From contig NZ_LNJP01000003.1 of assembly GCF_001547525.1 (NCBI RefSeq), forward strand, positions 1,178,001-1,242,000: 64,000 nt of DNA, written 5' to 3'. A program made the translations under genes and the position numbers. Under the pieces are notes generated by a model that worked only from the letters and a program-made list of their open reading frames with translations, had not been told where the DNA came from and searched no databases. Shown piece after piece: positions 42,524 to 59,261 of this stretch. Origin of the DNA: Burkholderia anthina (GTDB lineage: Bacteria; Pseudomonadota; Gammaproteobacteria; Burkholderiales; Burkholderiaceae). Numbering within the stretch: position 1 is the stretch's first letter; each line of letters starts with the position of its first letter.

Positions 42524-44485
42524 TCACTGATGTTCGGGTTCGACAGAAGTCGAAAAGGCAAACGGGAAGCGGCCCAGCACCGTATTGGTCTTCGCTATCT
42601 GCGCGCGATCGCTCAGCGCCACATGCAACGCGAGCCCGCGCGCCGGGTCGTCCACCATGCTCACCCGCGCACCCTCGACGCCGGCATCTTTCAGCGCGGA
42701 GATCAGTGCGTCGAACGTCTCCCATCGTTTGAGTTCGGGCTTGAAGATCTTGCCGACCGCCGTGAGCGGCATCGCATCGACGATATGAATCCGCTTCGGA
42801 ATCGCGGCACGCTCGCCGATCGAGCTGCGTATGAACGTGTCGAGCTCCGTCTCGGTTGCCATTGCGCCGGCTTTCAACTGCACGTAGGCGACCGGCAGCT
42901 CGCCTGCATGCACGTCGGGACGTCCGACTGCCGCGGCGATCTGCACTGCCGGGTGGCGGTGCAGCGGTTCCTCGATCGTCGCCGGATCGATGTTGTGCCC
43001 GCCCCGGATGATGAGCTCCTTGCGGCGCCCCGTGAGCCAGAAGTAGCCCTGCGCATCGCGCCGCGCGAGATCCCCGGTGTTGAGCCACTGCCGGCCGTCG
43101 CCGAGATCGAGCCACAGGCTCTTGTTCTGATCTTCCTGAAGGTAGCCCGCGAACACGTTCGGCCCTGAAATCGTCAGCACACCGACTTCGTTCTCGACGC
43201 AATCGCGCACGTAGCGGCCGGCGTCGTCGAGTATCACCGCCTTCATCATCTGGCCGGGGATGCGCAAACCGATCGAACCGAGACGCCGTTCACCGCCTGG
43301 CGGATTGACGCTGCTCACGCATGCGCCCTCGGTGAGCCCGTAACCTTCGAGAATCCGGACCCCGGTGCGATCCTGGAACGTACGGAATACTTCCACGGGC
43401 ATCGGCGCGGCGCCGCAGAGCCCATACTCGAGCGAGTCGATATTCCGGCCGTCGACGGGCACGTCGAGCAATGCCGAATACAAGGTCGGCACCGCGCTGA
43501 AGAAGTTGATCCTGTGGTGCTCGACGATTTCCCAGAACCGTTTGACAACGCCGTCGCCGCGATAGCCCTGTGGCGTACCCAGCACCACATGTGCGCCGCG
43601 CGAGAACGGCACCAGGCCCGTTGCCAGCACGGCATTGACATGGAACAGCGGCAGTCCGCAGAAAACGGTCTTGCCCGGGCCCATCCCGGCGCCGACGACC
43701 TGCCCGACGCTCCACGCATTGGCCACCTCGTTGCCGTGCCGGCGAATCGCGATTTTCGGCAACCCCGTCGTGCCGCCCGTGCAGAAGTAGGACGATATGT
43801 CGTCGGCTTCGAAACGCCGGGGGATCAGCAGCGAATCGCCGGATTCACGCGACATCGCACGGTCGAAATCGTGGATCTCGATGTGGCGAGGAACGGCGCC
43901 GCGCACGCCCGCGCGCCCGTGCAACTGCTTGCATTCGCGACGCTGCATCGCGCGTGCGGCCATTCGGCGCCACCCCTGCACGCGCTCGGCCAGATCGATC
44001 AGGACGAGGCTTTGCAGCGACGGCACCTGGCTCAGGACGGGATGGATCTTCGACCAGATATCCGTTCCCGGAAAGGGCGCCAGCGTCACCAGCACTTTTG
44101 CGTTTGCGGCCTTGAGCAGCGATGCGATCGCCGGCCCCTCCAGCAACGGATTGATTGCGCATACGATCCCGGCCGCTTCGCCGCCCCAGATGACGAAATG
44201 CGTCTCCGGCAAGTTCGGCAGCACGTAGGCGACCACCGAGTGGCGATCGATGCCCAGGCGCGAAAACAGGTTCGCGGCGCGGGTGATATCCCGCAGAAGC
44301 GCCGAATAGGTCCAGCGCAATGGCTTGCGATGATCGTCGGCGCGCAGGAAAAACGACAAGGCCGGCGCACTCGGGTCGATCGCCGCACCACGGCCGATCA
44401 TCTCGTAAGTGCTGGCCGGGAGGTCGTCGGGCGGCCCCTGGTTTTCGATCCGAAGCACGTCCGCTTCGGTTGCGATGGCGTTCAT
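42524..44485 (-). CDS. AMP-forming acyl-CoA ligase of the aromatic-catabolism operon
   Basis: 653 residues. Adenylation motif YFCTGGTTGLPKIAIRRHGN, TEGACVSSVNPPGGERRLGS, the hinge at TGDLARRDAQGYFWLTGRRK and a catalytic lysine in LTAVGKIFKPELKRW. It is longer than most (about 550), mainly through an insertion near residues 165-210 and a C-terminal extension (KDAGVEGARVSMVDD onward). The start ATGA overlaps the stop of the FAH-family gene. It activates a carboxylic acid, possibly a ring-cleavage product or side chain, as its CoA ester. Confidence 0.85.
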   Translation of the reverse strand: MNAIATEADVLRIENQGPPDDLPASTYEMIGRGAAIDPSAPALSFFLRADDHRKPLRWTYSALLRDITRAANLFSRLGIDRHSVVAYVLPNLPETHFVIWGGEAAGIVCAINPLLEGPAIASLLKAANAKVLVTLAPFPGTDIWSKIHPVLSQVPSLQSLVLIDLAERVQGWRRMAARAMQRRECKQLHGRAGVRGAVPRHIEIHDFDRAMSRESGDSLLIPRRFEADDISSYFCTGGTTGLPKIAIRRHGNEVANAWSVGQVVGAGMGPGKTVFCGLPLFHVNAVLATGLVPFSRGAHVVLGTPQGYRGDGVVKRFWEIVEHHRINFFSAVPTLYSALLDVPVDGRNIDSLEYGLCGAAPMPVEVFRTFQDRTGVRILEGYGLTEGACVSSVNPPGGERRLGSIGLRIPGQMMKAVILDDAGRYVRDCVENEVGVLTISGPNVFAGYLQEDQNKSLWLDLGDGRQWLNTGDLARRDAQGYFWLTGRRKELIIRGGHNIDPATIEEPLHRHPAVQIAAAVGRPDVHAGELPVAYVQLKAGAMATETELDTFIRSSIGERAAIPKRIHIVDAMPLTAVGKIFKPELKRWETFDALISALKDAGVEGARVSMVDDPARGLALHVALSDRAQIAKTNTVLGRFPFAFSTSVEPEHQ

Positions 44486-45438
44486 GCGCGCTCGTCCACG
44501 ATTCGGTTGCGTTGCACACCGAGGTCGATCGCCCCGTCCGTGCTCCGGATCCGTGCTTCGACCAGATCCCCGGCCTTCAGGTACTGCGGGCGAGCGGCCT
44601 GAACCTTCGCGAACATCCGCCACTTCATGTGCTCGGGCAGCAACGCGGCAATCCGTTGCTTCGCCGGCGACGGAATGCTGAGCGCGCATCCGGACGGCGT
44701 GCCCGTTGCAAGCAAGTCACCGGCGTTCAGATCCTGAACACCCGAAAGCTCCGTGAGCGTTTCGGCCGGACCGTACACGAGGTTCCCGGTCGAATCGCTC
44801 TGCCGCACTTCCCCGTTCACGGTCAGTGTCAGTGTCAGCGCGCGCAGCCGCGCGATATCGCCGGCCTCCAGCAGGCACAGATACGGCCCGACCGGCCCGA
44901 ACGTTCGATAGCTTTTCCCCTTGTAAAACTGCATTTGGGGAATCTGGATATCGCGTGCGGAATAGTCGTTGACGATCACGAGGCCAGCCACGTACTCGTG
45001 CAGGTTCTTGTCCGTGATGGCTTGCCGAGACGTGATATCGCGGCGAAGCACGAGCCCCAGTTCGATCTCGTAGTCGAGAAACCGCACATGTTGCGGCCGG
45101 ATGACGTCGGAATCGGCGGCGACGATGCAACTGGTCGCCTTCGTGAAGATCATGTTGAACGACTTCGCGTCCGGGTTCATGCCGGACTCGATCATGTGCT
45201 GGCGATAGTTCGCGCCCTGGCAAACGAACCGTTGATTGCGCGTGACCGGCGACAGCCACTCGACGTCCGACTCGGAAATCGTTTCTCCATCGAGCGCGGC
45301 GAGTTCATCGATCCGATGGGCTCGCACGAATTCGCCGGTCGTCGGGTAGTCGCCCGGTATCGGCGTGATCCGGTGATGCCTCACCACGCCCCATTGGGCG
45401 CGCCCCTGATGCCGGTAGTGCAAGACGTGCAATGCCAT
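44482..45438 (-). CDS. Fumarylacetoacetate hydrolase-family protein
   Basis: 318 residues. The metal-binding pattern E-x-E in DYEIELGLVLRRDI, the NDYSARDIQ motif, KGKSYRTFGPVGPYL and GDLLATGTPSGCA match FAH-family hydrolases and decarboxylases, which cleave C-C bonds in beta-diketo ring-cleavage products. Downstream of an extradiol-type dioxygenase it would split the ring-opened intermediate. It overlaps the ligase start (ATGA) and is 36 bp after the VOC gene. Confidence 0.86.
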   Translation of the reverse strand: MALHVLHYRHQGRAQWGVVRHHRITPIPGDYPTTGEFVRAHRIDELAALDGETISESDVEWLSPVTRNQRFVCQGANYRQHMIESGMNPDAKSFNMIFTKATSCIVAADSDVIRPQHVRFLDYEIELGLVLRRDITSRQAITDKNLHEYVAGLVIVNDYSARDIQIPQMQFYKGKSYRTFGPVGPYLCLLEAGDIARLRALTLTLTVNGEVRQSDSTGNLVYGPAETLTELSGVQDLNAGDLLATGTPSGCALSIPSPAKQRIAALLPEHMKWRMFAKVQAARPQYLKAGDLVEARIRSTDGAIDLGVQRNRIVDERA

Positions 45439-45474
45439 GAAGATGCCTCGAACAGGTCTGAGTGAAGATGAAGG

Positions 45475-46545
45475 TCACGCAAACAGCTTCGCGAGCGTGC
45501 GCAGCTTCGCGAACGTGACGTCCGGACTGGTCCGGAGGTTTCGGATGAGCGACGCGATGCTCGCGGCAGTGATCTTCGGTTTGGTGAAGCTGCGCGGCAT
45601 CCGGGGGCCCCATTGCGACATCGCTTCACGGCTGACTTCGTGGATGCCCGTCGCCACGTCCGCCGTGAACATGTCCCCATCGCAATAGTGTTCGTGCTTG
45701 TCGCCCCACGGGTCCTGCCAATAGTCGAAGACCTGGCTGCCGAGAATGTGGCGCCCCATTCCCCATGCGTGCGTCCATCCTCTTTCGCTCAGCACACGCT
45801 GCCCGACCCCCACGGCATCCGCGTCAACCAGCTCGAATGCCGAGTGGCTGTACAGCGCTGCGAACCCCTGTGCCAATGCCAGGGTATGGTGATCGGCGGG
45901 CGTCGCCCCGCGATCGAGTCGCAGGAACGCGACGGCGGGCGAGCCATCCGGCAACACCTGAACGTCGCTCGGGATGAAGCCGAAGTGAGACGTGTACCAC
46001 GCGCAGGTCGCCTGGAAATCGGCGAGTTCGAGCACGACATGACCGAGGCGAATCACTTCCGGCACTTCCAGCGGCGGACGCTGGGTATCGTTCACGCGAA
46101 CGATGGAATCGGGCGAGTTGAACGGTAACGCCGACCGGTGCGGCAGGGCGCCGGCCCGCGCTTGTCCCGCGACTGCGTCGACACGAAAACCCGACGGATC
46201 GACGAGCGTGACGCGATGCCCGCCACCGGGCCACGGCGACGGCTCCACGTCCGACGCGCCCGGCACGTCGGCAAGCTTTCGCAGTGCGTCGATGCCGTCG
46301 ACTTCGAGCCCGAAGCCGACGAAGCGGTTTTTTTCAGCCCGCCGGACGACGTAGCAGAACGGTGTGGCGGCCGTGCTCCGAAGGAACAGATGGTCGCCGT
46401 CACGGGATACCGTCCGCAGGCCGAAATCGTTGAGAAATCGTTCGGCCCGCTCGAGATCGGGACGCTCGAACATCAGATAGGAAAGCGCCCGGGCCTTCGT
46501 CGTCGGCTGGGGGCTCCGTGCGGGTTGTGCAGTAGTGAGCTTCAT
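45475..46545 (-). CDS. Two-domain VOC protein, extradiol dioxygenase-like
   Basis: 356 residues with two vicinal oxygen chelate domains (about 28-145 and 170-300). Candidate metal ligands are His in IRLGHVVLEL, His in ADHHTLALAQ and Glu in KHEHYCDGD. This is the layout of type I extradiol ring-cleavage dioxygenases such as 2,3-dihydroxybiphenyl dioxygenase. GAGG precedes ATG 46545. It sits 7 bp after the flavin monooxygenase, so hydroxylation and ring cleavage probably follow each other. Confidence 0.84.
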   Translation of the reverse strand: MKLTTAQPARSPQPTTKARALSYLMFERPDLERAERFLNDFGLRTVSRDGDHLFLRSTAATPFCYVVRRAEKNRFVGFGLEVDGIDALRKLADVPGASDVEPSPWPGGGHRVTLVDPSGFRVDAVAGQARAGALPHRSALPFNSPDSIVRVNDTQRPPLEVPEVIRLGHVVLELADFQATCAWYTSHFGFIPSDVQVLPDGSPAVAFLRLDRGATPADHHTLALAQGFAALYSHSAFELVDADAVGVGQRVLSERGWTHAWGMGRHILGSQVFDYWQDPWGDKHEHYCDGDMFTADVATGIHEVSREAMSQWGPRMPRSFTKPKITAASIASLIRNLRTSPDVTFAKLRTLAKLFA

Positions 46546-46552
46546 GGGGGCC

Positions 46553-48265
46553 TCAGGAAATCGGCTGGGCAATGTGATCGGTCAGCGACGACAACGACGT
46601 GCGCGCACCAAGCAACCGCAGGGATTCGAGAACGAGACGGGTCGAGTCGGCTACCGGGCCTTCGTGCAGGACCGTTTTGTCCGGCCGAATCACGGCCGCC
46701 CAGCCGAACCGCACGACACCCGGCATGAACGTACCGTCCAGGTCTTCCCATCCGTCGTTGTCGATGCGATGAAGGCGCTGCCCGCGGTGCACGACCCGCA
46801 CCACGACGCCACCCGCCGCAATGAACGCGGCTCGTGCGCCGGCGTCGAGCTCGACGCCTGGGTCCCGTCCGAATCCGATCAACGCGAGACCGCTACCGAA
46901 CACGTCGTCGCTCAGGCGGATCGCGCCATCGTGCTTGCGCAGCCATCCCTGCGGCAGCGCCGCGCCGCGTACGAGCCGCGTGGATGAATGGCCGGGGACG
47001 AACAGACCGCTCCGGAACGCATTCTTCGGCTTGATTCCGAGCTCGTCGAAGTGATTCCGCAGCGGCGGAACGAGCCGTGTCAATCGCATCAGACCATGCG
47101 TGAACAACGCGATCCCGGCATTTCGCGGCATCACGAGCTTCCCCATGAATTTCGCGACGCCGATCATCGCCTTCGCGTGCGGCCGGCGTTCCAGATCGTA
47201 GGAGTCCAGAATTTTCTGGGTTGCGTGGCCTTTGACGACCCACGCCAGTTTCCAGCCGAGATTTGCGGCATCGCGCAGACCGGCGACGAGCCCCTGGCCG
47301 ACGAACGGCGGAGTGATATGGGCGGCGTCGCCCGCGAGAAAAACGCGCCCTTTGCTGAACGTCGTGACGGTTCGGGCATGAAAACGGTACACGGCCTTGC
47401 GTTCGATCACCATGTCCTCGATGCCGCCCCACGGCGCGAGCAGTTCGCGGATGCGTTCGTCGGATTCCATCTCCTCTCGCGTCTCGCCGGGATGGAGCAT
47501 GAATTCCCAACGCTCACGCCCGCCGGGAGCGGTCATATGCGGCGTCGGCCGCCGGTGGTCACAGATGAACTCGACATGGTCGATGGGTCGACGCACGTTT
47601 CGCGCGTCGACAATCAACCAGTCTTCCGCGAACGTCTTGCCTTTGAAATCCTGTCCGATCAACTGGCGCACGATCGAACTGGCACCATCGGCACCGACGA
47701 CGTAGCGAGCGCGCACGACGTGCCGCGCGCCCTGCCCGCCGTCGAGCGTGGCGGCGACGTGATCGGCGTGCTCGTCGAGCGAGACGAGCGTCACACCCAG
47801 CGCCATTCGGGCGGTGCGGTGCGCGGCCAGTCGGGCACGCAAGCATCGCTCCAGGTCCGGTTGATAGAACGTCACGAGCTTCGGATGGCCATCGACGCTC
47901 CCCAGCGTATTGATGCGTCCGAACTCGCCGAACCAGGGAGAGCGCATCCGGACGTACGGGATCGCCACCGTATCGAGGTCGGCTTCGTTCACCCCGATGT
48001 ACTGCAGGATGCGAAGCGCGTCGTTGTCGAGCGCGATCGCACGCGGCGCCATGAAGATCTCCGCCGCCCGGTCGACGACAAGCACACGCACGCCATCCCG
48101 GCCAAGAAGCGCGCCGATCGCCGCGCCGACGGGGCCGCAGCCCACCACCAGCACGTCTACATCCGATGGCAAGTCGCGGCCGCCGGCACAGCTCGCGTTG
48201 TCGTTGCCTTCATGGACGCCCGGCTCGCACGTCAGTTTTGTCTCCACCACCGTTCCGTCTCCCAT
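46553..48265 (-). CDS. FAD-dependent aromatic hydroxylase (MhpA-like)
   Basis: 570 residues, a class A flavoprotein monooxygenase. FAD dinucleotide motif VVGCGPVGAAIGALLGRDG, the DG motif VVGADGASSIVRQ and GD motif FLAGDAAHITPPFVGQGLV are intact. The length and C-terminal thioredoxin-like domain fit MhpA/PheA-type hydroxylases, which add an ortho hydroxyl to phenolic acids with NADH. It is the first gene of the operon and starts 31 bp from the TetR operator (48297-48328), so it is under direct repression. Confidence 0.87.
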   Translation of the reverse strand: MGDGTVVETKLTCEPGVHEGNDNASCAGGRDLPSDVDVLVVGCGPVGAAIGALLGRDGVRVLVVDRAAEIFMAPRAIALDNDALRILQYIGVNEADLDTVAIPYVRMRSPWFGEFGRINTLGSVDGHPKLVTFYQPDLERCLRARLAAHRTARMALGVTLVSLDEHADHVAATLDGGQGARHVVRARYVVGADGASSIVRQLIGQDFKGKTFAEDWLIVDARNVRRPIDHVEFICDHRRPTPHMTAPGGRERWEFMLHPGETREEMESDERIRELLAPWGGIEDMVIERKAVYRFHARTVTTFSKGRVFLAGDAAHITPPFVGQGLVAGLRDAANLGWKLAWVVKGHATQKILDSYDLERRPHAKAMIGVAKFMGKLVMPRNAGIALFTHGLMRLTRLVPPLRNHFDELGIKPKNAFRSGLFVPGHSSTRLVRGAALPQGWLRKHDGAIRLSDDVFGSGLALIGFGRDPGVELDAGARAAFIAAGGVVVRVVHRGQRLHRIDNDGWEDLDGTFMPGVVRFGWAAVIRPDKTVLHEGPVADSTRLVLESLRLLGARTSLSSLTDHIAQPIS

Positions 48266-48296
48266 TCTCGGGACTGGCCACTGCCGGCCGTCCTGA

Positions 48297-48328
48297 TGAC
48301 ATTAAAGTCATAATTGATAACTTTGTCA
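48297..48328. promoter_or_regulatory. Candidate TetR operator, copy B
   Basis: TGACATTAAAGTCA-TAAT-TGATAACTTTGTCA in the 100-bp divergent gap between the hydroxylase and the TetR gene. It is a 32-bp inverted repeat with the same half-sites as copy A at 41413. A TetR dimer bound here would block both promoters. Confidence 0.65.
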
Positions 48329-48365
48329 ATTTTGACGTTCGAACGTATACTCGAACACCGAAACC

Positions 48366-49145
48366 ATGCGCACGCCGATGCCCAACACTTCTTCCCGTCG
48401 CACCAGAACACCGTCGCCGGCCGTCTCGAACGGGCACGCGCCGTCGAGCCCCGAGGTTCGCGAGCCGCGGGGCGCGCGCCGCAAGCGCGAGACGCGCGCG
48501 CGCTTGCTGGATGCCGCCTTTGTACTCATGGCGCAAAAGGGGATGGAAGGCGTCGCGATCAATGAAATTACGGAAGCCGCGGACGTGGGCTTCGGGTCGT
48601 TCTATAACCACTTCGAATCGAAAGAAGCGATTCATGCCGCGGTTCTGGAAATCGTGTTCGAGGAGTTCGCGGATACCCTGGACCGCATCGCAGGCAGCCT
48701 CACCGACCCGGCCGAGATCATTTCCGTGTCGCTGCGCCATACATTGCTGCGAGCCAGAAGCGAGCCGGTCTGGGGACAATTTCTCCTGCGCGAAGGGTTG
48801 TCCATGCGAGCGCTCAGCCGCGGCCTCGGACCGCGGTTGTTGAGGGATATTCAGAAAGGCATCCTCGCGGGAAGATTCTCGGCAAGCGACCCGCTGATGA
48901 GCGTGATTACGGTCGGGGGCGCGGTACTGACCGCCATTGCGATCGAGCTCCGATTCGATGCGGACGAGAAGCCGGTTACCGACATGTTGAACATGATCGG
49001 GTACAGTCAGAACGGCTTTGCCGAGCGTGCAGCTTCATCCCTTTTGCAGACGTTGGGTGTGCCGCGAACTGAAGCGACAGAGATTGCGAATCGCCCGTTG
49101 CCGCCCGCTGTGACGTCTGCGCCCGAGGAGTCGCCGGAGCGCTAG
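48366..49145 (+). CDS. TetR-family repressor of the aromatic operon
   Basis: 259 residues. A basic, disordered N-terminal tail of about 40 residues precedes a TetR helix-turn-helix (RARLLDAAFVLMAQKGMEGV, then AADVGFGSFYNHFESKEAI). The ligand-binding helices follow (about 90-215). The gene is divergent from the MhpA-like gene with operator copy B in between. ATG 48378 is an alternative start. The inducer is probably the aromatic substrate or its CoA ester. Confidence 0.86.
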   Translation: MRTPMPNTSSRRTRTPSPAVSNGHAPSSPEVREPRGARRKRETRARLLDAAFVLMAQKGMEGVAINEITEAADVGFGSFYNHFESKEAIHAAVLEIVFEEFADTLDRIAGSLTDPAEIISVSLRHTLLRARSEPVWGQFLLREGLSMRALSRGLGPRLLRDIQKGILAGRFSASDPLMSVITVGGAVLTAIAIELRFDADEKPVTDMLNMIGYSQNGFAERAASSLLQTLGVPRTEATEIANRPLPPAVTSAPEESPER

Positions 49146-49376: not shown

Positions 49377-50636
49377 TCAGTCGACCTGCCCGACCGCTGC
49401 CCCCTGCGCCAGCCGTCTTTTGACGCCCACGAACGCCAGGCCGGCCAGCGCGATGGAGCCACCATAGAACAGCAGCGCCGTCACGTCCGTTCCGAGCCGG
49501 GAGAACACGAACCCGACCGCCAGCATGCCCAATCCGAGGCCGGTGCGCTCGGCAACGTACGAGATACCGATCACGCGATCGCGCGACGCGGCCGGCGTCG
49601 ACTGCAGGAGCGAATAGTAGATCGTCTCCGTGGCGGCGTCGAAAATGCCCGCCAGCAAGACGAAGCCCAACATGCCCGGCATGCCACGCACCTCGAAGAC
49701 GCCGAGGAAGCACGCGAAGGTCAGGATCAGCAACGCGATGAAATACGGCTCGAGCGGCTGGTGACGCGATTCGAGACGCTCCAGCAAGCGCGGCGTCACT
49801 GCCGCGGAAACGAGCCGTCCGACACCCCACACAGCCATCAGCCAGCCGTATAGAAACGCGGGCTGATTCGGGTCGAACAGCTGCGACCTGATCGGGAAGC
49901 CGACATTGTGCGTACCCGAGCCGAACGCTTCGACGAAGCGCGCGCCGATCACCAGCATCACGATGACCGACAGATAGCGCGCCGCGCGCGGCAGTGCGCC
50001 GGCCTCGGCCGCAGCGCGCGTCTCCTCGGCCGGTCGATGCCGGCGCGGCATGTTGCCCACCAGCATCAGAAATGCGATGGCGGAGATCGCGAACGTGATC
50101 GAATCGATCAGGAATACGCTCTTGTAGGCCAGGTACTGCGTGATCACCGATGCGAGCAGGCTACCGCCGACCACCGACACCCCATCGGTCGCACTGAGGA
50201 TCGCATTGAAACGATGCCGGCCCTCCTGCCCGACCATTTCCGGCACCTCGGACATGATGGACACCCGGTAGATCCCCTGGAAAAGCCCGATGAAGAACGG
50301 CACGAAATAGATGAGCGACGCGTCGGCGGCACGCGACGACGTGGCCAGCACGCCGATCGCCAGTGCACTGCCCGCTTCCGCGGCGAAGATCAGGGTACGG
50401 CGGGAGAACCGGCTCAGCCGCGGCACCGCGGCGCCGCCCGCGACCGCACCCAGCAGGCGCGACGCCATCGTCAGGCCGAGCAGCGCGGCGGAGCCCGTGA
50501 CCTCCAGCGCGTAGGTCGCCAGAACGATGCTGATCATCGTCGAACTGATGTCCGAGATCGTCTTGAACGACAACCAGACGTACAACTGCGCCAACGAAGA
50601 CGAAGCGCGTTTTTCTAGAACCAGCTCGGATTTCAT
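49377..50636 (-). CDS. MFS exporter (EntS/MFS_3-like) of the beta-amino-acid cluster
   Basis: 419 residues with 12 predicted helices. ISDISSTMISIVLATYALEV in TM1, LSRFSRRTLIFAAEAGSAL after TM2 and the AATETIYYSLLQSTPAASRD loop resemble the EntS branch that exports siderophores and small peptides. It is the last gene of a tight four-gene operon (6 bp after the dioxygenase), so it probably pumps out the product and gives self-protection. Confidence 0.82.
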   Translation of the reverse strand: MKSELVLEKRASSSLAQLYVWLSFKTISDISSTMISIVLATYALEVTGSAALLGLTMASRLLGAVAGGAAVPRLSRFSRRTLIFAAEAGSALAIGVLATSSRAADASLIYFVPFFIGLFQGIYRVSIMSEVPEMVGQEGRHRFNAILSATDGVSVVGGSLLASVITQYLAYKSVFLIDSITFAISAIAFLMLVGNMPRRHRPAEETRAAAEAGALPRAARYLSVIVMLVIGARFVEAFGSGTHNVGFPIRSQLFDPNQPAFLYGWLMAVWGVGRLVSAAVTPRLLERLESRHQPLEPYFIALLILTFACFLGVFEVRGMPGMLGFVLLAGIFDAATETIYYSLLQSTPAASRDRVIGISYVAERTGLGLGMLAVGFVFSRLGTDVTALLFYGGSIALAGLAFVGVKRRLAQGAAVGQVD

Positions 50637-50642
50637 GGCAGC

Positions 50643-51347
50643 TCATCTCGCTGAGGAAAAGGAAATCAGCAACATGTCCCGGAACGCGAGTTCGTCCGGG
50701 TTGGCTTGCTGAACGGCATTGGCACTGTGGTACAGCACGGCATCGTTCACGATCACGGTATCGAGGAAATCCGTCAGCGGCCGTGCGAACAAGGGAACGG
50801 TGGAGACCTTCGACGCGTGGATCTCCGATACGACCGGCCGGATATTGCGACTGTCGATGAAATGCATGAAGACCCATTCCAACCCGTCCTGGTGAATCCC
50901 CGATGTGGTCGGACTGACCTCACCTTGTTCCGCAATGATCCGGAACAGATGGACATCGATCTTGTACTCCCGCCCCGCAACCAGCCGCTCCCCGAGGATG
51001 GCGATGTCGACGTCCAGCAACTGGCGGAGAATCGCACTTTCTATGAAGGAGTCCTCGGCATAGGTCAAGCGATTGACGCCCGGCACGTAGTCCACATCGT
51101 AGGTCGCGGTTGGCTCGAAATTCGTGTTCCGGTCAATTTGCAACGGTTGACCCGGCTTGAAGCGATACAGCAGGAAGCGCCGTTCGCGTCGCGTGTAGCG
51201 CTTATAGTTCTCGTCGACGACAAGGCGCTCCCAGTGGCGCTTGAACGCAACAACCTCGTCGCCATCGCAGCGGATCACGCCGTGGAAGCGTGGTGCATGG
51301 CAATAGCCGTTGCGATTCAACTCGTCAATGACGGTATCGATGGACAT
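50643..51347 (-). CDS. 2-oxoglutarate/Fe(II) dioxygenase, free amino-acid hydroxylase type
   Basis: 234 residues of the 2OG-Fe_Oxy_2 (PF10014) kind. Iron ligands His152 and Asp154 (SGIHQDGLEW) and His207 (VLYHSANAV); 2-oxoglutarate-binding Arg223 (FRDMLLISF). Characterised relatives, such as the L-isoleucine 4-hydroxylase of Bacillus, hydroxylate free L-amino acids. ATG 51347 has GGGAGA upstream. In this operon it could hydroxylate the amino-acid building block or the finished dipeptide. Confidence 0.82.
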   Translation of the reverse strand: MSIDTVIDELNRNGYCHAPRFHGVIRCDGDEVVAFKRHWERLVVDENYKRYTRRERRFLLYRFKPGQPLQIDRNTNFEPTATYDVDYVPGVNRLTYAEDSFIESAILRQLLDVDIAILGERLVAGREYKIDVHLFRIIAEQGEVSPTTSGIHQDGLEWVFMHFIDSRNIRPVVSEIHASKVSTVPLFARPLTDFLDTVIVNDAVLYHSANAVQQANPDELAFRDMLLISFSSAR

Positions 51348-51375
51348 CGTGTCTCCCGTGAGTCGGGCCATTCGT

Positions 51376-52737
51376 TCAGGAAACGATTTCCGGCTCGATA
51401 TCGCGAACGATCCGGTCATAGAGATCGATCGCATGATCGCGCCCATTCACTGCCGCCCAGCCCTTCAGCAGATAATTTTCCTCGATGTCCGCCCGGACCT
51501 CGCTACCGACCGGGCAGGCGACCTTGCATTCGATGATCGCCGGATCGCCGACGACGGAATCGAGCCCGCGGATTCCGTTGAATGTTCCGCTCGCCTCTGG
51601 AAACAGCGCGAACATCGAGTAATGCTGGCGCCCGTCCGCCGCGCGTTCGCAGGCGCTTCGCAAGCGTTCGTGCAGCCCGGAAGCCCGTGTCAGCATCAGC
51701 AGATAGAGCTCGTACGGGTCGAGGCCCGCGATGTCCTTGAGCGCCGCGTTCACATAAAGGCCGCCGAGCCGCGGATTGATCTCGATGACGATCGGGCCGG
51801 TCGGCGACAGACGGAATTCGAGGTGCACGATCGCGTTGCGCAGGCCGATCGCTTCGAGACAATCGATCGCATACCGATTGATCTCGGCAATCGCGGGCGC
51901 CGGAAAGGACACCGGCGGCGAGATCAGCAGGTTTTCCAGCACCGTGCCGCGCTTCTCCGTCAGGATCAGCTTTTCGTTGATCAGCACCGGATAAACCTGA
52001 TCGTCGACGATCACGCATTCGACGCTGCCTTCGACGCCGTCGATGTACTGTTCAAGCAGAATGCTCTTGCCCGGCTCATAGTGAACCGGGGCGCCGTCAC
52101 GGGCGTGGACGTCGTGCGCCATGCCGTAGTAGTCCGAAACCACTGCCTGACCATGTTGCGCGGTGAATCGCTGATAGTGATCGCGCAATTCGTTCCAGTC
52201 GCGACACTTCGCGGTAAAGGCCGAGCCCGCGCCGTAAGGCGGTTTCGCGATCAGCGGATAGCCCACTGTGTCGGCGGCTTCTCGCAATGCGTCGACATCG
52301 CTGCACATTGCGTGTCGAATCGACCGTACCCCCCGTTCCTCCAGCGCCGCACGCATCAGGAATTTGTTGTTGCAGGCGGCGACGGCCGCCGACGGAGAAT
52401 GGACTCGGCCGGTCATCCGGCAAACCTCGGCGACCACCGCGCCCACTTCCCCATAGGCCGACGCCTGCCCCGCATAGCAAAAGACGGCCTTCACGTCATA
52501 GTGCGCGTCCAGATACTCGAGCAATCTCAGCAGCGACTCGACGGAAAGCGAATCGAGCCACCACGTGTCGTCGCGCGCCGCGCGTGCATCGCCGTCCGTC
52601 GGCACGTGCCGGCGCACGACGGCCGTCAGGCACGCGAGACCCATCTTGCGAGCGACCTCGAAGTGATAATCCCGATAGCTGGTCAACGACAGCAAGGAGC
52701 CCTCGATTTGCACAAACAAAACCGCGTCTTGTCGCAT
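51376..52737 (-). CDS. ATP-grasp ligase (amino-acid/dipeptide ligase type)
   Basis: 453 residues. N-terminal Rossmann-like part, then the ATP-grasp fold: YPLIAKPPYGAGSAF (ATP-binding lysine and glycine loop), ILLEQYIDGVEGSVECVIVD, and VIEINPRLGGLYVNAALKDI with the Mg-binding Glu and Asn. The arrangement is that of L-amino-acid ligases (BacD, RizA), which activate a carboxylate as acyl phosphate and join it to an amine. It is 47 bp after the aminomutase gene and 28 bp before the dioxygenase, and would couple the beta-amino acid to a second residue. Start at ATG 52737. Confidence 0.82.
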   Translation of the reverse strand: MRQDAVLFVQIEGSLLSLTSYRDYHFEVARKMGLACLTAVVRRHVPTDGDARAARDDTWWLDSLSVESLLRLLEYLDAHYDVKAVFCYAGQASAYGEVGAVVAEVCRMTGRVHSPSAAVAACNNKFLMRAALEERGVRSIRHAMCSDVDALREAADTVGYPLIAKPPYGAGSAFTAKCRDWNELRDHYQRFTAQHGQAVVSDYYGMAHDVHARDGAPVHYEPGKSILLEQYIDGVEGSVECVIVDDQVYPVLINEKLILTEKRGTVLENLLISPPVSFPAPAIAEINRYAIDCLEAIGLRNAIVHLEFRLSPTGPIVIEINPRLGGLYVNAALKDIAGLDPYELYLLMLTRASGLHERLRSACERAADGRQHYSMFALFPEASGTFNGIRGLDSVVGDPAIIECKVACPVGSEVRADIEENYLLKGWAAVNGRDHAIDLYDRIVRDIEPEIVS

Positions 52738-52784
52738 GTTTTCACCTGGATGAGAAATCAGTCCGCACACCGCTCAGCGCCCGT

Positions 52785-53974
52785 TCAGTTGTCGATCCAG
52801 TCGCACGTTTCGCCCTGCCAGTTGACGAACCGGTAGATGCGTTGTTCGCCGGTTTCTACAAACTGCGGGATGTCGCCCTGGCCTTCGAACAGCGGCACCG
52901 TAAACTTTCCTTTCGCATGAGGCAGCACATACTCGGGCATCGCAACGTTCGAAACGCGCCGCTTCAGTCGGTTCATGATGCGGATGGCGTCGCGGATCGA
53001 GGCCTTGTAGACCGACGCGCCCGGCGAGAACGGCATGAAGTGATACAGGTAGTACGGTTTGACGCCGCGGCGATACAGTTCGATGAAGAGCCGATGCAGC
53101 GTCTCCTCGTCGTCGTTGATGCCGCGCAGGAATGGCATGTTGGAAAATACGATCGGCACCGCCGACCGAATCCGCTTCACTGCGTCCGTGAAGGCCGGAC
53201 TGAGTTCGTCCGGATGGCAAACGTGAACGCCGAATGCGTTCACCCGATGCCGCTCGAGCATTGCGACCAACTGATCGGTGACCCTGTACGGATTGAAGGT
53301 GAGCGATCTGGAGTGAATCCGGATCAGGAGATCGCGTCCGACGTCACGCAGGGCGGACAGATGCTCGTCGAGCTTGGCGTCGGAGAGCATCAACGGGTCG
53401 CCGCCGCTCAGAATAACTTCCTCGATTGCCGGATTCTGCTTGATATAGGCCACGCTTTCGCCGAACGTGTCCCGGCTGGCGTTGGTCTTTTCGCTATTGA
53501 CTTCAAGCGTGCGGAGCGCCTCGAAGCAGAACTGGCAATACGAATTGCACGTGTTGACCATGCGCAAAATGACGCGATTGTCGTACTTGTGCTGACAGAT
53601 CGGCGTCTTCATTTCATGCGCCAGCTCCCAGTTTTCCGATTCGCCATCGTATCCTCCGACGATTTCGTCACTCCAGAACGGAACGACCTGACGCCATAGC
53701 GGATTCCGGACGATGTCGGCGTCGGTGTCGCCCTGCGATTCGCGAATCAAGCGGAGATAATAGGGCGTGATCTGTAGCTTGCGGCCGTTCAGGTTGCTTT
53801 GAATGTGCGAACTCAGTTCGTCGGACCAGCCCCCGCAGGCCTCGCGTAGCGATGCTTCCTCCCGGATGGTGTTCCGTTGCTGCCAGCGCCAGTCGCGCCA
53901 TTCGGCCGACGCGACATCAAAACTCCGATAGTTGTCCGAATATTTTTTTCGCCACCAGAATTTCCAATCAACAT
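52785..53974 (-). CDS. Radical-SAM 2,3-aminomutase homologue (KamA family), apparent 5' frameshift
   Basis: The frame from 52785 up to about 53945 encodes a KamA-family protein: cluster motif C-x3-C-x2-C (MVNTCNSYCQFCFE), EEVILSGGDPLML, VNAFGVHVCHPDE, FLRGINDDEETLHRLF and a PLP-lysine region near PHAKGKF. Upstream homology (ASAEWRDWRWQQRN) continues to a stop with no ATG or GTG. An ATG at 53974 with AGAGGG before it is in another frame; one extra A in the A7 run (53943-53949) joins them into about 396 residues, the usual length. Either a one-base deletion, a read error or transcriptional slippage. The aspartates that hold the lysine side chain in classical enzymes are absent. Confidence 0.78.
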
Positions 53975-54945: not shown

Positions 54946-55076
54946 CTCGCAGAAAAGGTGTCTTGGGGCCCCTATACAGATCAAGGACTTGGACATCTTT
55001 TTTGAGAACACCGCATGCTTCTTGTCTCAGAAAAGATGTCCTTGGCCACGAAAATTCTCAGAAAAGTTGTCCTTCG
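54946..55076. repeat. Cluster of about 20-bp repeats, consensus TCTCAGAAAAGATGTCCTTGG
   Basis: Three direct copies start at 54946, 55025 and 55056 (CTCGCAGAAAAGGTGTCTTG, TCTCAGAAAAGATGTCCTTG, TCTCAGAAAAGTTGTCCTTC). A fourth, inverted copy lies at about 54991-55009 (read on the minus strand: TTCTCAAAAAAGATGTCC). A hairpin GCGAGCCC-CTTGT-GGGCTCGC (54930-54950) runs into the first copy. Arrays like this occur as transposase-binding sites at ends of IS21/Tn7-like elements; no transposase is present, so a remnant end is inferred. Confidence 0.6.
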
Positions 55077-55174
55077 GAATGTCACGCCCCTACCTAGGCG
55101 CCTCGGCGGAATTCGGCGACCGGTAGCACAATGGATGAGCGTTTCAGCGGCCAGCGATGTCGGCACTTCTTGTG

Positions 55175-55192
55175 CTATAAATGTGCATATAG
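55175..55192. promoter_or_regulatory. Candidate antitoxin operator CTATA-N8-TATAG
   Basis: CTATA and TATAG form an inverted repeat over an AT-rich promoter 21-38 bp before the antitoxin start codon, where an Xre-like protein would repress its own gene. Confidence 0.4.
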
Positions 55193-55212
55193 TGTGCGCC
55201 GAGAAAGCTTCC

Positions 55213-55617
55213 ATGAACCCCGGTCTGGCCCGAGATTCAACGCCCCCCCTCGATTTCGATCACTTCCTGGCGTCTTTGAAGGACTCGGAGAGCGCTGCGC
55301 CGATCGTCTCGGCGCGACGCTTCGCGGCCGCCCTGCATATCGATATGCAGACACTCGCACGGCTGGCCCATGTCCATCGCAATACCATCAGTCGTCTTCC
55401 CGGCGCCGAAAGCGTGCAAAAGTATCTTCGAGACGCGCTGCGGGTCATCCGAGCTGCAACCGATATCTCCGGAGATATACGGAGCACGCTGTTTTGGTAT
55501 CGCAATGAACCACTGCCGACCTTTGGCTACAAGACTGCCGAAGAGCTGATATCGGAGGGACGCACTGAAGACTTGCTGCGCTACATCACATCGCTCGAGG
55601 CCAGTGCGTCCGGATAG
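55213..55617 (+). CDS. Xre/MbcA/ParS-type antitoxin (orphan)
   Basis: 134 residues. An N-terminal helical region with an HTH-like stretch (FAAALHIDMQTLARLAHVHR) is followed by the DUF2384 toxin-binding domain (LRVIRAATDISGD ... FWYRNEPLPTFGYKTAEELI). Such antitoxins neutralise RES-domain toxins that destroy NAD. No RES gene lies on either side, so it is an orphan, or its toxin has been lost. A decayed copy of its second half follows immediately. Confidence 0.8.
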   Translation: MNPGLARDSTPPLDFDHFLASLKDSESAAPIVSARRFAAALHIDMQTLARLAHVHRNTISRLPGAESVQKYLRDALRVIRAATDISGDIRSTLFWYRNEPLPTFGYKTAEELISEGRTEDLLRYITSLEASASG

Positions 55618-56814: not shown

Positions 56815-58284
56815 CTACTGTCGCCGAGAAGCTGGACCCAGAATCCATCGAACCCGGATACCTGTCTGAGCTTCATCCTCCCGTGCGATGACTCCTTGAT
56901 CCCGCATCTTCGCGAACATGCTCGTGATCTGCTCCGCCGAATCGAGAGCGAGAAGATCCAGAGCCTGTCGATTGTTGATGGCCCCATGCCGTCCAATAAA
57001 GGTTGTGATGATACCCGCCGCGTCGACCTTCGGTTCTCGCCGCAGCGTTACATAGAGATTGGCGCCGTCTTCTATAAAGATTGGATCAACAAACCCTGCC
57101 CGTCGCATTCGGCCGACGACAGTGTTGATGCCTTCGCCGAGATCCTTATTTGGAGCATCTGGATATTTTGAAAGCAGCCGAACAAGCTTCGGATTCCGAG
57201 AAAAACGAGCGTCGGCGATGTTTTGAGTAGTTACATAACCAGGTAAGCGGCCTGGGCTCCGAAACTCTACACGATTTCTGTAAACGCTAATGAGCACGTT
57301 GTCCGAAACCCCGTAGTCGCGATGCAGAACAGCATTCACAAGCAGCTCATATAGTGCCTCATCCGGGTACGCCGGGGCAAGCAGTCCGTCCAACGTCCAG
57401 CAGACGCTCCGGCCGATTACCTCTTTCAGAATGCGGAATGCCTCTTCGATTTGATCGCGAAGCGAACCTTCAATCGAGTGCGTGTCGTTAGTCAGACTAT
57501 CTCGTTCAATTTCATCGTGAGAAGAATCGTAACGAACGATTTTTACTGCACACTGGCGAGGCATAGTCGAACTCGGATTCTCGGCAAAGAGAAGCACACT
57601 TGCGACTGAGGGTGCAAAGGAATCGGGATGAATCAGCCGCTCCTGCAGCGCGAACGAAATCGGATCCTTGTGGGTAATACGAAGCGACTGAAGAAATGTC
57701 CTGATGGGCGCTCCATCCACAATTAATTCAGGATGAACCTCAGTCAGCCACATGTCCTCCTCCGAAATCATCCCCTTGGCACGCATTAGGTCCTGGACCT
57801 TCGAAGCGGTTAGCTTCAGGTTCTGAGCACCTTTGCGTATGAGCACTTCTCCACTGGACGTCTCATGGACCTTCAGACTCCTCCGAATCTCAAGCTCCAA
57901 GACGAAAGCAGGAGTTAGCTGTCCTTTTCGATAAAGAAATCGATGACTAAAGTCAATGCCTGGATTCAAGGTGGCAAGCGCTGAAATGAAGCTATTGTAG
58001 TCTTCGATCGACGGTTTACCTACCCAACGATCAAGTGGAACTGGAGTCTTACGACTGTCTTCGACACCGATCACCAGCGTCCCACCTTCTGCATTCGCAA
58101 AAGCTACTGCCGGATCCTGAATATCTTTAGCCTTGAGGCGCGCCGACTTTCGATCAAAATAGTCACTTTCTTCCCGTTGACAGAGGTCAAGGGCCTCCGT
58201 TTCATCAATTTCAACAATCTTGGTCATCGTGTCTTTTTTTATTACAGTGGTCTCTTGTTCCCATAGCGCCGCCCCTATCCTCAT
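56815..58284 (-). CDS. AlbA_2 (Schlafen-like) DNA-binding protein with RecG-like GHKL ATPase domain
   Basis: 489 residues. Residues 20-150 form an AlbA_2 domain (ESDYFDRKSARLKAKDI, AVAFANAEGGTLVIGVEDS). The middle carries an HATPase_c_4 module (DEALYELLVNAVLHRDYGV, ISVYRNRVEFRSPGRLPG) and the C-terminus a winged-helix (NRQALDLLALDSAEQITSMF). This is the layout often annotated as RecG-like regulators. The start ATG at 58284 overlaps the HNH stop as ATGA; an internal ATG at 58227 is less likely. Coupling to a nuclease points to defence, with this protein as sensor or regulator. Confidence 0.82.
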   Translation of the reverse strand: MRIGAALWEQETTVIKKDTMTKIVEIDETEALDLCQREESDYFDRKSARLKAKDIQDPAVAFANAEGGTLVIGVEDSRKTPVPLDRWVGKPSIEDYNSFISALATLNPGIDFSHRFLYRKGQLTPAFVLELEIRRSLKVHETSSGEVLIRKGAQNLKLTASKVQDLMRAKGMISEEDMWLTEVHPELIVDGAPIRTFLQSLRITHKDPISFALQERLIHPDSFAPSVASVLLFAENPSSTMPRQCAVKIVRYDSSHDEIERDSLTNDTHSIEGSLRDQIEEAFRILKEVIGRSVCWTLDGLLAPAYPDEALYELLVNAVLHRDYGVSDNVLISVYRNRVEFRSPGRLPGYVTTQNIADARFSRNPKLVRLLSKYPDAPNKDLGEGINTVVGRMRRAGFVDPIFIEDGANLYVTLRREPKVDAAGIITTFIGRHGAINNRQALDLLALDSAEQITSMFAKMRDQGVIAREDEAQTGIRVRWILGPASRRQ

Positions 58285-59261
58285 TGGGGCGAGGGGTTAA
58301 ACCGCTTTGCATAATCTAGAAACTCGCGATTCAACGTATCTGCATCAGTCGAATAGTGGGCGTCTCGATGACAATTTGGACACAAGGCGACGCAATTCCA
58401 CACTCGATCGCCTTTTTCCGCTCCGAGTATGTGATGCACATCCAAAAAACCTCGATAGCGCTGCCGATGGCCACATCCAACGCGCTCACATGCGTCTGTC
58501 CGGGCAAGCACCGCGCATCGAACCTTCGGGTCGCGCTTGACCTCCGAACGTACTGCTAGACGACGTTCGGCGCCGTCGCTGCCAATAAGCCACGAATCCA
58601 CAACGGGACAGTCGTCGTAGGTGTCATCGACATAGTCTTCGGTAGCCGTCGAATCGATAGGAATCTTAGCCAAATCGACAACACCCGGCCAATTCCACAG
58701 CACATCTGCAACCTCATGTCCGCGTGGCCAACGGTCATCCTGCAACCAAACAGTTGGACTGGTGCCGTTCATGGCATGGTTCTTCGACATTCGACCCAAA
58801 GCCCCCTTGGCTATCAGGTGGCTGCTCACATCGCGCTGTCCACGCCAAATTGGCGCGAGTTCCTCACGGGGGATTAGTGCGGCAAACACGATCTCTGCAC
58901 CTTCACGCTGCACCAAAAGGTGATGCGTGTTGCCCTCAGTAAGGTCGCGCTCAACGATAGCGGCAAGCGTACCGTCCCAGTTGCCCTTGATCAGCCGCGC
59001 ACGCAATTGAGCCGCCGCATACTTCCCCTTGGTAGCTCGCTCACCTGACCATCTCCAGCACAACCGGACGCGCATTTGCAGTTCTAGGCCGTCGTCACCG
59101 CGCACACGAACGAACTGCGAGATTGCGGTACCCATCTGCTTTCGCTTGTCATGCAAGACTTGATACCCCCGCGCTGCAAGGAACGGTGCGATGGCATCAC
59201 GCGTCACCGCCTCCTCAGCAAGGCTTTCTGTGCTGCGAAATACGCGTTGCCCTTTGCTCAT
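58281..59261 (-). CDS. HNH endonuclease with an N-terminal sensor-like domain
   Basis: 326 residues. The C-terminal 65 residues are an HNH nuclease: CERVGCGHRQRYRGFLDVHH, ILGAEKGDRVWNCVALCPNC and HRDAHY, with two zinc-binding cysteine pairs. The first 230 residues match nothing I recognise and may read DNA or modified bases. Restriction nucleases and several anti-phage systems share such a layout. It is translationally coupled to the AlbA_2 gene and lies 30 bp after a small zinc-ribbon gene. Confidence 0.8.
   Translation of the reverse strand: MSKGQRVFRSTESLAEEAVTRDAIAPFLAARGYQVLHDKRKQMGTAISQFVRVRGDDGLELQMRVRLCWRWSGERATKGKYAAAQLRARLIKGNWDGTLAAIVERDLTEGNTHHLLVQREGAEIVFAALIPREELAPIWRGQRDVSSHLIAKGALGRMSKNHAMNGTSPTVWLQDDRWPRGHEVADVLWNWPGVVDLAKIPIDSTATEDYVDDTYDDCPVVDSWLIGSDGAERRLAVRSEVKRDPKVRCAVLARTDACERVGCGHRQRYRGFLDVHHILGAEKGDRVWNCVALCPNCHRDAHYSTDADTLNREFLDYAKRFNPSPQ

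What the first reader, a model, noticed from the sequence alone, without database searches (positions are those of the whole stretch)
49377..53974. Unassigned beta-amino-acid peptide pathway: aminomutase, ATP-grasp ligase, 2OG dioxygenase, exporter
Four genes on one strand with gaps of 47, 28 and 6 bp encode a radical-SAM 2,3-aminomutase homologue, an amino-acid-ligase-type ATP-grasp enzyme, a free-amino-acid hydroxylase-type dioxygenase and an EntS-like exporter. By family roles these make a beta-amino acid, join it to a second residue, hydroxylate it, and export it. There is no NRPS, PKS or carrier protein, so this would be a ribosome-free, carrier-free dipeptide route. I know of no described Burkholderia product from this combination.
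Basis: partly seen in the sequence, partly recalled or inferred. Interest (0 to 1): 0.85.

Follow-up and report, generated by a model that had tools for sequence, protein, structure and literature searches.

The report
Portable four-gene small-peptide pathway
Four neighbouring genes, found together in the same order in many unrelated bacteria, look like a complete kit for making and exporting a small unusual peptide whose structure is still unknown.

Summary
The operon is real: a KamA-type radical-SAM enzyme (AM), ATP-grasp ligase (ATPg), PF10014 dioxygenase (DIOX) and MFS exporter lie on the minus strand with the stated gaps. But the AM start given (53974) is out of frame with the AM body; nine of nine relatives checked have an in-frame start. 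Of 36 loci with an AM relative, 34 carry all four genes in the same order. In 398 Pseudomonas genomes the 17 with clade-A AM are the 17 with the close ligase. Three Xenorhabdus genomes fuse ligase and dioxygenase.

AM is neither EpmB nor a canonical Lys, Arg or Glu aminomutase; with clade B it forms a 100/100 group in which residues recalled as substrate-binding differ. A relative of the ligase sits near a probable arginine 2,3-aminomutase in four Pseudomonas genomes, which fits a beta-amino-acid ligase. The dioxygenase may hydroxylate or close a ring. The same four families, in order, are in print as pboFGHI of Pseudomonas syringae, product unknown. Best reading: a carrier-free peptide pathway with a new aminomutase subfamily; substrate, product length and activity unproven.

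The parts
52785..53972 (-). AM: KamA-family radical-SAM aminomutase homologue, open reading frame (stop at 52785); clade A of a new KamA subfamily
   Evidence: open frame; PF04055; best PDB match 2a5h lysine 2,3-aminomutase by sequence and fold; below the cut-off of every NCBIfam KamA model it matches; no in-frame ATG/GTG/TTG upstream of the W.WQQ motif, unlike 9 relatives
53972..53974 (-).
   Evidence: (stops in that frame)
51376..52737 (-). ATPg: ATP-grasp ligase of the L-amino-acid-ligase type
   Evidence: PF13535 43.7 bits, cut-off 27; PDB matches BacD 3vmm and BL00235 3vot; E314, E326, N328, R330 (numbering of P0001) invariant in 23 of 23 aligned rows, paralogues included
50643..51347 (-). 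DIOX: PF10014 iron/2-oxoglutarate dioxygenase
   Evidence: PF10014 115.7 bits; H185, D187, H240 invariant in 23 of 23 rows (numbering of the 267-aa ORF); model pLDDT 87.8; fold matches 8w8h, 3pl0, IDO 6lnh, HrmJ, BelL, TqaL
49377..50636 (-). MFS: major facilitator exporter, least conserved member of the set
   Evidence: PF07690 8.5e-22; 25-38% identity in relatives outside Burkholderia

Best explanation
A self-contained, horizontally moved pathway for a small exported peptide, made without ribosome or carrier protein. AM, a member of a new KamA subfamily, moves the amino group of a free amino acid (probably neutral, not Lys, Arg or Glu) from C2 to C3. ATPg joins this unusual amino acid to a second residue through an acyl phosphate. 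DIOX oxidises the building block or the peptide, by hydroxylation or ring closure. MFS exports the product. Shown here: gene content, order, conservation, catalytic motifs, ATPg-DIOX fusion in three genomes, and pairing of this ligase family with more than one kind of KamA protein. Inferred: every reaction, the substrates, the order of steps and the peptide length.
For: 34 of 36 genome-contig loci hold all four genes in one order and strand, across Pseudomonas, Xenorhabdus, Dickeya, an Enterobacteriaceae MAG, Neisseriaceae, Thiotrichales and Rhodobacteraceae/Paracoccaceae; of the other two, L022 ends at the contig edge and L039 is clade B. Flanking ORFs differ between lineages, though close relatives share some, so the four genes are the unit. 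In 398 Pseudomonas genomes the 17 with clade-A AM and the 17 with close ATPg are the same. L010, L015 and L016 encode ATPg and DIOX as one ORF of 694-695 aa. L040 adds a second ATPg and DIOX after MFS. The remaining 4 of 21 Pseudomonas genomes with an ATPg relative (31-32%) all carry another KamA gene nearby; the one scored, L106, passes the arginine 2,3-aminomutase cut-off (643.6 against 600), and L113 is 94% identical to it. L027 has a further KamA-like plus ATP-grasp pair. dN/dS is below 1 for all four genes against both same-genus relatives, on few changes.
Against: No reaction is tested. Residues recalled as substrate-binding in lysine 2,3-aminomutase (R134, D293, D330) differ in AM, so an aminomutase reaction is not assured. 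LAL_C2 scores below cut-off in ATPg (21.1 against 29.4). The window copy of AM may lack a usable start. In P. syringae the same families lie in a cluster with NRPS and PKS genes. In Pseudomonas sp. GD03858 (L031) an NRPS with carrier domains and an AzlC gene lie upstream on the same strand, and in P. palleroniana (L030) AMP-binding, reductase, N-acetyltransferase and another ATP-grasp gene do, so the set may sometimes feed a larger route. Clade-B AM occurs without this ligase. Promoter and terminator scans were at chance level.
Confidence: 0.58

Rival explanations
1. The set is a sub-module that supplies a modified building block or tailoring step to a larger NRPS/PKS product, as in the Pbo cluster; the stand-alone copies make only the precursor or are remnants.
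For: pboFGHI are the last genes of the pboA-pboI operon, in a cluster with NRPS and PKS domains. L031 has an NRPS (AMP-binding, condensation, PP-binding, thioesterase) and an AzlC gene upstream; L030 has AMP-binding, KR-type, N-acetyltransferase and ATP-grasp genes upstream.
Against: No carrier domain lies in the 64-kb window. ORFs of 780 aa or more occur in 6 of the loci mapped; of these L031 and L035 were scanned and only L031 is an NRPS. L016, L019, L032 and L033 were not scanned, nor were smaller ORFs in most loci. The set has its own exporter in 34 of 36 loci.
Confidence: 0.19
2. The radical-SAM enzyme is not a 2,3-aminomutase but does other radical chemistry on a free amino acid or amine; ligase, dioxygenase and exporter act as in the main reading.
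For: LAM D293 and D330 align with P in clade A and B rows in both alignments; LAM R134 aligns with E. The 8 typical KamA references (LAM, AblA, AblA-like, two BlsG, Leptospira KamA, two EpmB) keep R134 and D293. The family sits on a long 100/100 branch and below the KamA cut-offs.
Against: In the alignment, which opens a gap in LAM, R134 aligns instead with the arginine of the EALRT loop, so its role may be kept; the model there has pLDDT under 50. The CxxxCxxC motif and a Lys in a C-terminal GK motif are kept. The fold is best matched by lysine 2,3-aminomutase. The partner ligase family also pairs with a probable 2,3-aminomutase.
Confidence: 0.15
3. The product is mainly a secreted signal that controls other secondary metabolism rather than an antibiotic or antimetabolite.
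For: In P. syringae pv. phaseolicola the polar pboG mutant makes no phaseolotoxin although some other strains make it without Pbo; the authors propose a regulatory metabolite.
Against: The mutations are polar in an operon with other genes, and nothing here links stand-alone copies to a regulated toxin cluster. This is about the role, so it can hold together with the main reading.
Confidence: 0.3
4. In this particular strain the pathway is dead: the window copy of AM is a pseudogene.
For: No in-frame start upstream of the conserved N-terminal motif; nine of nine relatives have one.
Against: The rest of the frame is open and nearly identical to the relatives; assembly error or an unusual start is not excluded.
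Confidence: 0.35

Closest known systems
Pbo cluster genes pboF-pboG-pboH-pboI, Pseudomonas syringae pv. phaseolicola (PMC8473136; first two of six text parts, the tables section and passages seen)
   Same: Same four families in the same order: KamA-like rSAM, ATP-grasp ligase, Ido-like 2OG dioxygenase, MFS; also in a genomic island of limited distribution.
   Different: Embedded in a 16-gene cluster with NRPS and PKS genes; product unknown. No pbo sequence was identified here, so identity was not measured.
Hil operon, Pantoea and others (PMC3684760; passages seen)
   Same: PF10014 dioxygenase, and in some bacteria a PF13535 ligase and MFS transporter; its authors also proposed a dipeptide antibiotic.
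   Different: No aminomutase in the passages; carries HilA and HilC, which are absent here.
Bacilysin (BacD, BacE) and dapdiamide (DdaF) type routes
   Same: Stand-alone ATP-grasp ligase joins a non-protein amino acid (bacilysin as told in PMC3684760; dapdiamide recalled).
   Different: Non-protein amino acid made by unrelated enzymes (recalled); ATPg scores 34.8 against 850 (BacD) and 35 against 840 (DdaF).
Belactosin and hormaomycin enzymes BelL and HrmJ (PMC10764440, PMC11427300; passages seen)
   Same: Oxygenases of the same fold as DIOX; belactosin peptide bonds are made by ligases without NRPS. The best PDB sequence match of DIOX is HrmJ.
   Different: Substrate 6-nitronorleucine comes from a haem-oxygenase-like enzyme; no aminomutase in those passages.
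Mangotoxin mbo cluster (PMC13185094; passages seen)
   Same: Short peptide assembled by ATP-grasp ligases MboC and MboD.
   Different: A haem-oxygenase-like acetylenase; 'aminomutase', 'radical SAM' and '2OG' do not occur in the text.
Lysine 2,3-aminomutase (2a5h), arginine 2,3-aminomutase (BlsG), EpmB
   Same: Fold (2a5h), rSAM motif, detectable homology to AM.
   Different: AM differs at recalled substrate residues and scores far below each equivalog cut-off.

Membership tests
KamA lysine/arginine/glutamate 2,3-aminomutases (TIGR03820, TIGR04468, TIGR04368) | score above NCBIfam equivalog cut-off | tested here: not met
   198 against 525.4; 199.6 against 600; 191 against 650
KamA lysine/arginine/glutamate 2,3-aminomutases (TIGR03820, TIGR04468, TIGR04368) | radical-SAM CxxxCxxC motif | tested here: met
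   CNSYCQFC in the window; the three Cys invariant in 20 of 20 rows
KamA lysine/arginine/glutamate 2,3-aminomutases (TIGR03820, TIGR04468, TIGR04368) | D293 of LAM (role recalled; kept in 8 of 8 typical references) | tested here: not met
   P in clade A and B rows
KamA lysine/arginine/glutamate 2,3-aminomutases (TIGR03820, TIGR04468, TIGR04368) | R134 of LAM (role recalled; kept in 8 of 8 typical references) | tested here: inconclusive
   E in the alignment, loop R in that
KamA subfamily TIGR00238 | score above subfamily cut-off 199.2 | tested here: inconclusive
   window 183.5, not met; relatives L007 200.3, met, and L037 183.4, not met
EpmB (TIGR03821) | score above cut-off 369.3 | tested here: not met
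   168.2; only match in the genome, 167.2
ATP-grasp L-amino acid ligases | ATP-grasp_4 domain above gathering score with conserved E, N, R | tested here: met
   43.7 against 27; residues invariant in 23 of 23
ATP-grasp L-amino acid ligases | LAL_C2 domain above gathering score | tested here: not met
   21.1 against 29.4 in the window; 32.4, met, in the second L040 ligase
ATP-grasp L-amino acid ligases | ATP-dependent peptide bond between free amino acids | not testable with these tools
   needs an assay
PF10014 dioxygenases | PF10014 score and HxD...H iron triad | tested here: met
   115.7 against 23.1; H185, D187, H240 in 23 of 23 rows
EntS exporters (NF007792) | score above cut-off 324 | tested here: not met
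   37.4; plain MFS_1 is met, 78 against 33.4
Pbo module pboFGHI | same four families in the same order | tested here: met
   Table 1 of PMC8473136
Pbo module pboFGHI | sequence homology of each gene | not tested
   no pbo sequence was identified among the loci fetched
Hil operon | HilA (PF13640) and HilC (short-chain dehydrogenase, PF00106) genes | tested here: not met
   none of the four genes matches these families

The most novel reading that the evidence does not exclude
AM belongs to the first radical-SAM 2,3-aminomutase subfamily that acts on a neutral, perhaps branched-chain-like, amino acid and recognises it by an E-A-L-R-T loop and a hydrophobic pocket where lysine aminomutase has aspartates; DIOX closes a small ring on the resulting residue; and the four genes alone make an exported peptide with a reactive group, shared by plant-, insect- and soil-associated bacteria.
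Probability: 0.2. Interest if true: 0.85.

Novelty: new variant of a known kind. Interest (0 to 1): 0.57.

Why it matters
Stand-alone ATP-grasp peptide routes are a known kind, but this one starts from an uncharacterised radical-SAM aminomutase subfamily and is compact enough (about 4.6 kb) to test whole. It would link an unexplained plant-pathogen cluster (Pbo) to genes shared with fluorescent pseudomonads, Dickeya and insect-pathogenic Xenorhabdus, and make the product of that module directly findable. A radical aminomutase for neutral amino acids would also be useful for making beta-amino acids.

Tried and rejected
EpmB reading: rejected on score and because AM is the only match to the model in the genome. 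Chance neighbourhood: rejected by co-occurrence. Lysine, arginine or glutamate aminomutase: rejected on scores and on D293. R134 replaced outright by E: not decided, because two alignments differ and the model is poor there. Distant ATP-grasp hits G1165 and G1347 (E 1.6e-44 and 2.6e-41) were checked: no KamA match within the 18 kb fetched and 24-28% identity; I treat them as another family. Pfam did not recognise the ATP-grasp-like gene of L074; profile comparison gave a partial match, probability 81.5, E 1.1e-5. A paper search for LAM residues gave no usable passage. PDB codes of the nearest dioxygenases gave no paper about them (listing). Promoter and terminator scan: 1 and 6 sites against 2.3 and 5.0 in shuffles. 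Literature searches that showed no description of the stand-alone four-gene set: (listings; one search lists 20 of 116 papers). A family missing from the structure list is not excluded by it.

Rows dropped: Embleya L084 was translated in a wrong frame and left out of the tree. In the greedy ORF maps some genes are hidden by longer antisense ORFs (for example in L014, L021, L039); counts of the four genes come from tblastn, not from that map. L027_2nd, a very divergent KamA-like row, keeps neither R134 (K) nor D293 (A) and is not among the 8 typical references. Of 8 clade-B loci, gene neighbourhoods were looked at in 4 (L039, L043, L072, L074).

The NRPS in L031 is real, so I raised the sub-module rival from 0.17 to 0.19 and lowered the main reading from 0.60 to 0.58.
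Full report
What is there. On the minus strand between 53974 and 49377 lie a KamA-family radical-SAM gene (AM), an ATP-grasp ligase (ATPg), a PF10014 iron/2-oxoglutarate dioxygenase (DIOX) and an MFS exporter. Gaps of 47, 28 and 6 bp follow from starts at 52737, 51347 and 50636. The window copy may be defective at its 5' end, or the assembly may be wrong. The rest of the frame is open.

Host and surroundings. The window lies in a 7.27-Mb genome of 4 contigs. The closest named sequence is a 3.2-Mb replicon of Burkholderia cenocepacia CMCC(B)23006, collinear at 98.2% over 14.3 kb; an unnamed same-genus genome is collinear at 98.0% over 9.4 kb. Both matches stop about 1 kb upstream of AM, where GC falls: operon 61.0%, 10 kb upstream 52.6%, window 64.4%. 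So the operon sits at the edge of a variable, low-GC stretch. In its genus AM relatives (E up to 1e-30) occur in 3 of 65 genomes: two with the operon and one (G020) with a clade-B AM and none of the other three genes in the 16 kb fetched. No carrier-protein domain lies in the window.

The four genes travel together. A pattern scan of one genome for each of 84,980 species, which finds close relatives only, gave 36 loci. In 34 of them tblastn finds all four genes in the same order and strand; L022 stops at the contig end and L039 (Streptomyces) has AM alone. Among 398 Pseudomonas genomes 23 have AM at E up to 1e-60: 17 are 66-72% identical (clade A) and 6 are 46-51% (clade B). ATPg at E up to 1e-40 is in 21 of the same 398: 17 close ones (43-52%) in exactly the 17 clade-A genomes, and 4 at 31-32%. 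In the order of the Xenorhabdus genome G066 4 of 325 genomes have ATPg at E up to 1e-40; 3 are strong and lie beside AM and DIOX. Across the window's phylum AM (profile, E up to 1e-80) is in 4 of 398 genomes, own genome included. Flanking ORFs differ between lineages, though close relatives share some. In L010, L015 and L016 (Xenorhabdus) ATPg and DIOX are a single ORF. L040 (Paracoccaceae) has a second ATPg-DIOX pair after MFS. MFS is the least conserved member, 25-38%.

AM is a new KamA subfamily. It scores below the cut-off of each KamA model it matches, EpmB included. In a tree with LAM, BlsG, AblA, AblA-like, EpmB, a Leptospira KamA and the divergent L027_2nd, clades A and B lie beyond one long branch (5.68 changes per column, 100/100); B is one clade (99/98); whether A is one clade is not resolved. 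L027_2nd has a very long branch and its place is unsure. Clade A and B rows keep CxxxCxxC and, except L036, which departs at its C-terminal end, a GK motif near the recalled PLP lysine. At LAM D293 and D330 they have P. At R134 the alignments disagree: E, the arginine of an E-A-L-R-T loop. The 8 typical references keep R134 and D293. The roles of these LAM residues are recalled, not read. The model cannot decide, with pLDDT under 50 there. The best fold match is lysine 2,3-aminomutase. The inference is a substrate other than Lys, Arg or Glu.

The ligase is an aminomutase partner. In all 4 Pseudomonas genomes with a 31-32% ATPg relative, a KamA gene lies within about 2 kb (L105-L107, L113). The one scored (L106) passes the arginine 2,3-aminomutase cut-off (643.6 against 600); its neighbours include an asparagine-synthase-like gene, a protein that matches VioC and GntD below their cut-offs, a MATE exporter and an aminotransferase. 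L113 is 94% identical to it. L027 carries yet another KamA-like gene next to an ATP-grasp gene. So one ligase lineage is repeatedly found with different KamA proteins, which fits a ligase for beta-amino acids. This is association, not proof. Two weak ATP-grasp hits without KamA (G1165, G1347) are distant.

Context from clade B and from neighbours. In 4 clade-B loci looked at (of 8), AM lies with a D-2-hydroxyacid dehydrogenase and an aminotransferase (by Pfam in L074, by reading in L039, L043 and L072), and with an AzlC exporter (L072 by Pfam, L043 by reading), an MFS exporter and an ATP-grasp-like gene (L074), or an alanine racemase and a haem-oxygenase-like protein (L039). Upstream of the clade-A operon L031 has an NRPS and an AzlC gene, and L030 has AMP-binding, reductase, N-acetyltransferase and another ATP-grasp gene. 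AzlC-type export and the substrates of DIOX relatives hint at small neutral amino acids; this is a weak inference. The NRPS in L031 speaks for the rival that the set can feed a larger route.

What is known. The Pbo cluster of P. syringae pv. phaseolicola holds pboF (LAM-like), pboG (ligase), pboH (Ido-like dioxygenase) and pboI (MFS) in that order at the end of the pboA operon; four mutants in that operon, one in pboG, make no phaseolotoxin, some producers lack Pbo, and the authors propose a regulatory secondary metabolite (PMC8473136: first two of six text parts and the tables section; a later review, passages, repeats this). No pbo sequence was identified here, so homology rests on family and order. 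The Hil operon authors proposed a dipeptide antibiotic from oxygenases, a ligase and an exporter, without aminomutase in the passages seen (PMC3684760). ATP-grasp peptide routes without NRPS are known from mangotoxin and belactosin (passages). Eight literature searches showed no account of the stand-alone four-gene set; they are listings, and the library lacks most subscription journals.

Selection. Between the window and two same-genus relatives all four genes show dN/dS below 1 (0.045 to 0.45), on 1 to 17 synonymous and 1 to 11 non-synonymous differences per gene; AM was counted from 53750. This fits use of the proteins but is weak.

Verdict. New variant of a known kind.

Noticed in passing
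window 56815-58284 (-), 58281-59261 (-), 55015-55617 (+): Low-GC stretch upstream with a Schlafen/AlbA_2 plus HATPase_c_4 protein, an HNH-like protein just below the Pfam cut-off and an Xre-like HTH protein just below cut-off; possible island or defence genes.
   Followed up: partly
window 44482-49145: TetR regulator divergent from an FAD hydroxylase of the 3-(3-hydroxyphenyl)propionate type, a VOC/extradiol-dioxygenase-like protein and an FAH-family hydrolase: looks like an aromatic catabolic cluster; the DNA is collinear over all of it in L042 and over most of it in L044, which was fetched only in part.
   Followed up: partly
L105, L106, L107, L113: Pseudomonas cluster with a 31-32% ATPg relative and a KamA gene; in L106 an arginine 2,3-aminomutase by cut-off, asparagine-synthase-like protein, VioC/GntD-like protein, MATE exporter, Asp/Arg hydroxylase-like protein and an aminotransferase that also matches GntC; possibly a beta-arginine peptide cluster.
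   Followed up: partly
L043, L072, L074, L039: Clade-B aminomutase homologue with D-2-hydroxyacid dehydrogenase and HisC-like aminotransferase, plus varying exporters; L039 in Streptomyces adds an alanine racemase, a haem-oxygenase-like protein and a methionine adenosyltransferase-like ORF.
   Followed up: partly
L040 7902-14548: Paracoccaceae locus with AM, ATPg, DIOX, MFS, then a second ATPg and DIOX: possible longer peptide.
   Followed up: partly
L027 15027-17111 (-): Second KamA-like plus ATP-grasp pair near the operon in Pseudomonas fildesensis, very divergent.
   Followed up: partly
L031 23-7029, L030 8-7814: Clade-A operon preceded on the same strand by an NRPS and an AzlC gene (L031), or by AMP-binding, reductase, N-acetyltransferase and a further ATP-grasp gene (L030): possible larger clusters that include the set.
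   Followed up: partly
L035 2760-7334: A large ORF with a ToxA_N (dermonecrotic toxin N-terminal) match lies upstream of the operon in Pseudomonas fluorescens PS918; probably unrelated.
   Followed up: no
L085: Xenorhabdus bovienii megaplasmid with annotated arginine 2,3-aminomutase, aminotransferase, TauD-type dioxygenase and type I PKS.
   Followed up: no
L036 near 9005: AM of Xenorhabdus lircayensis departs from its relatives at the C-terminal end, as if the frame were disturbed there.
   Followed up: no
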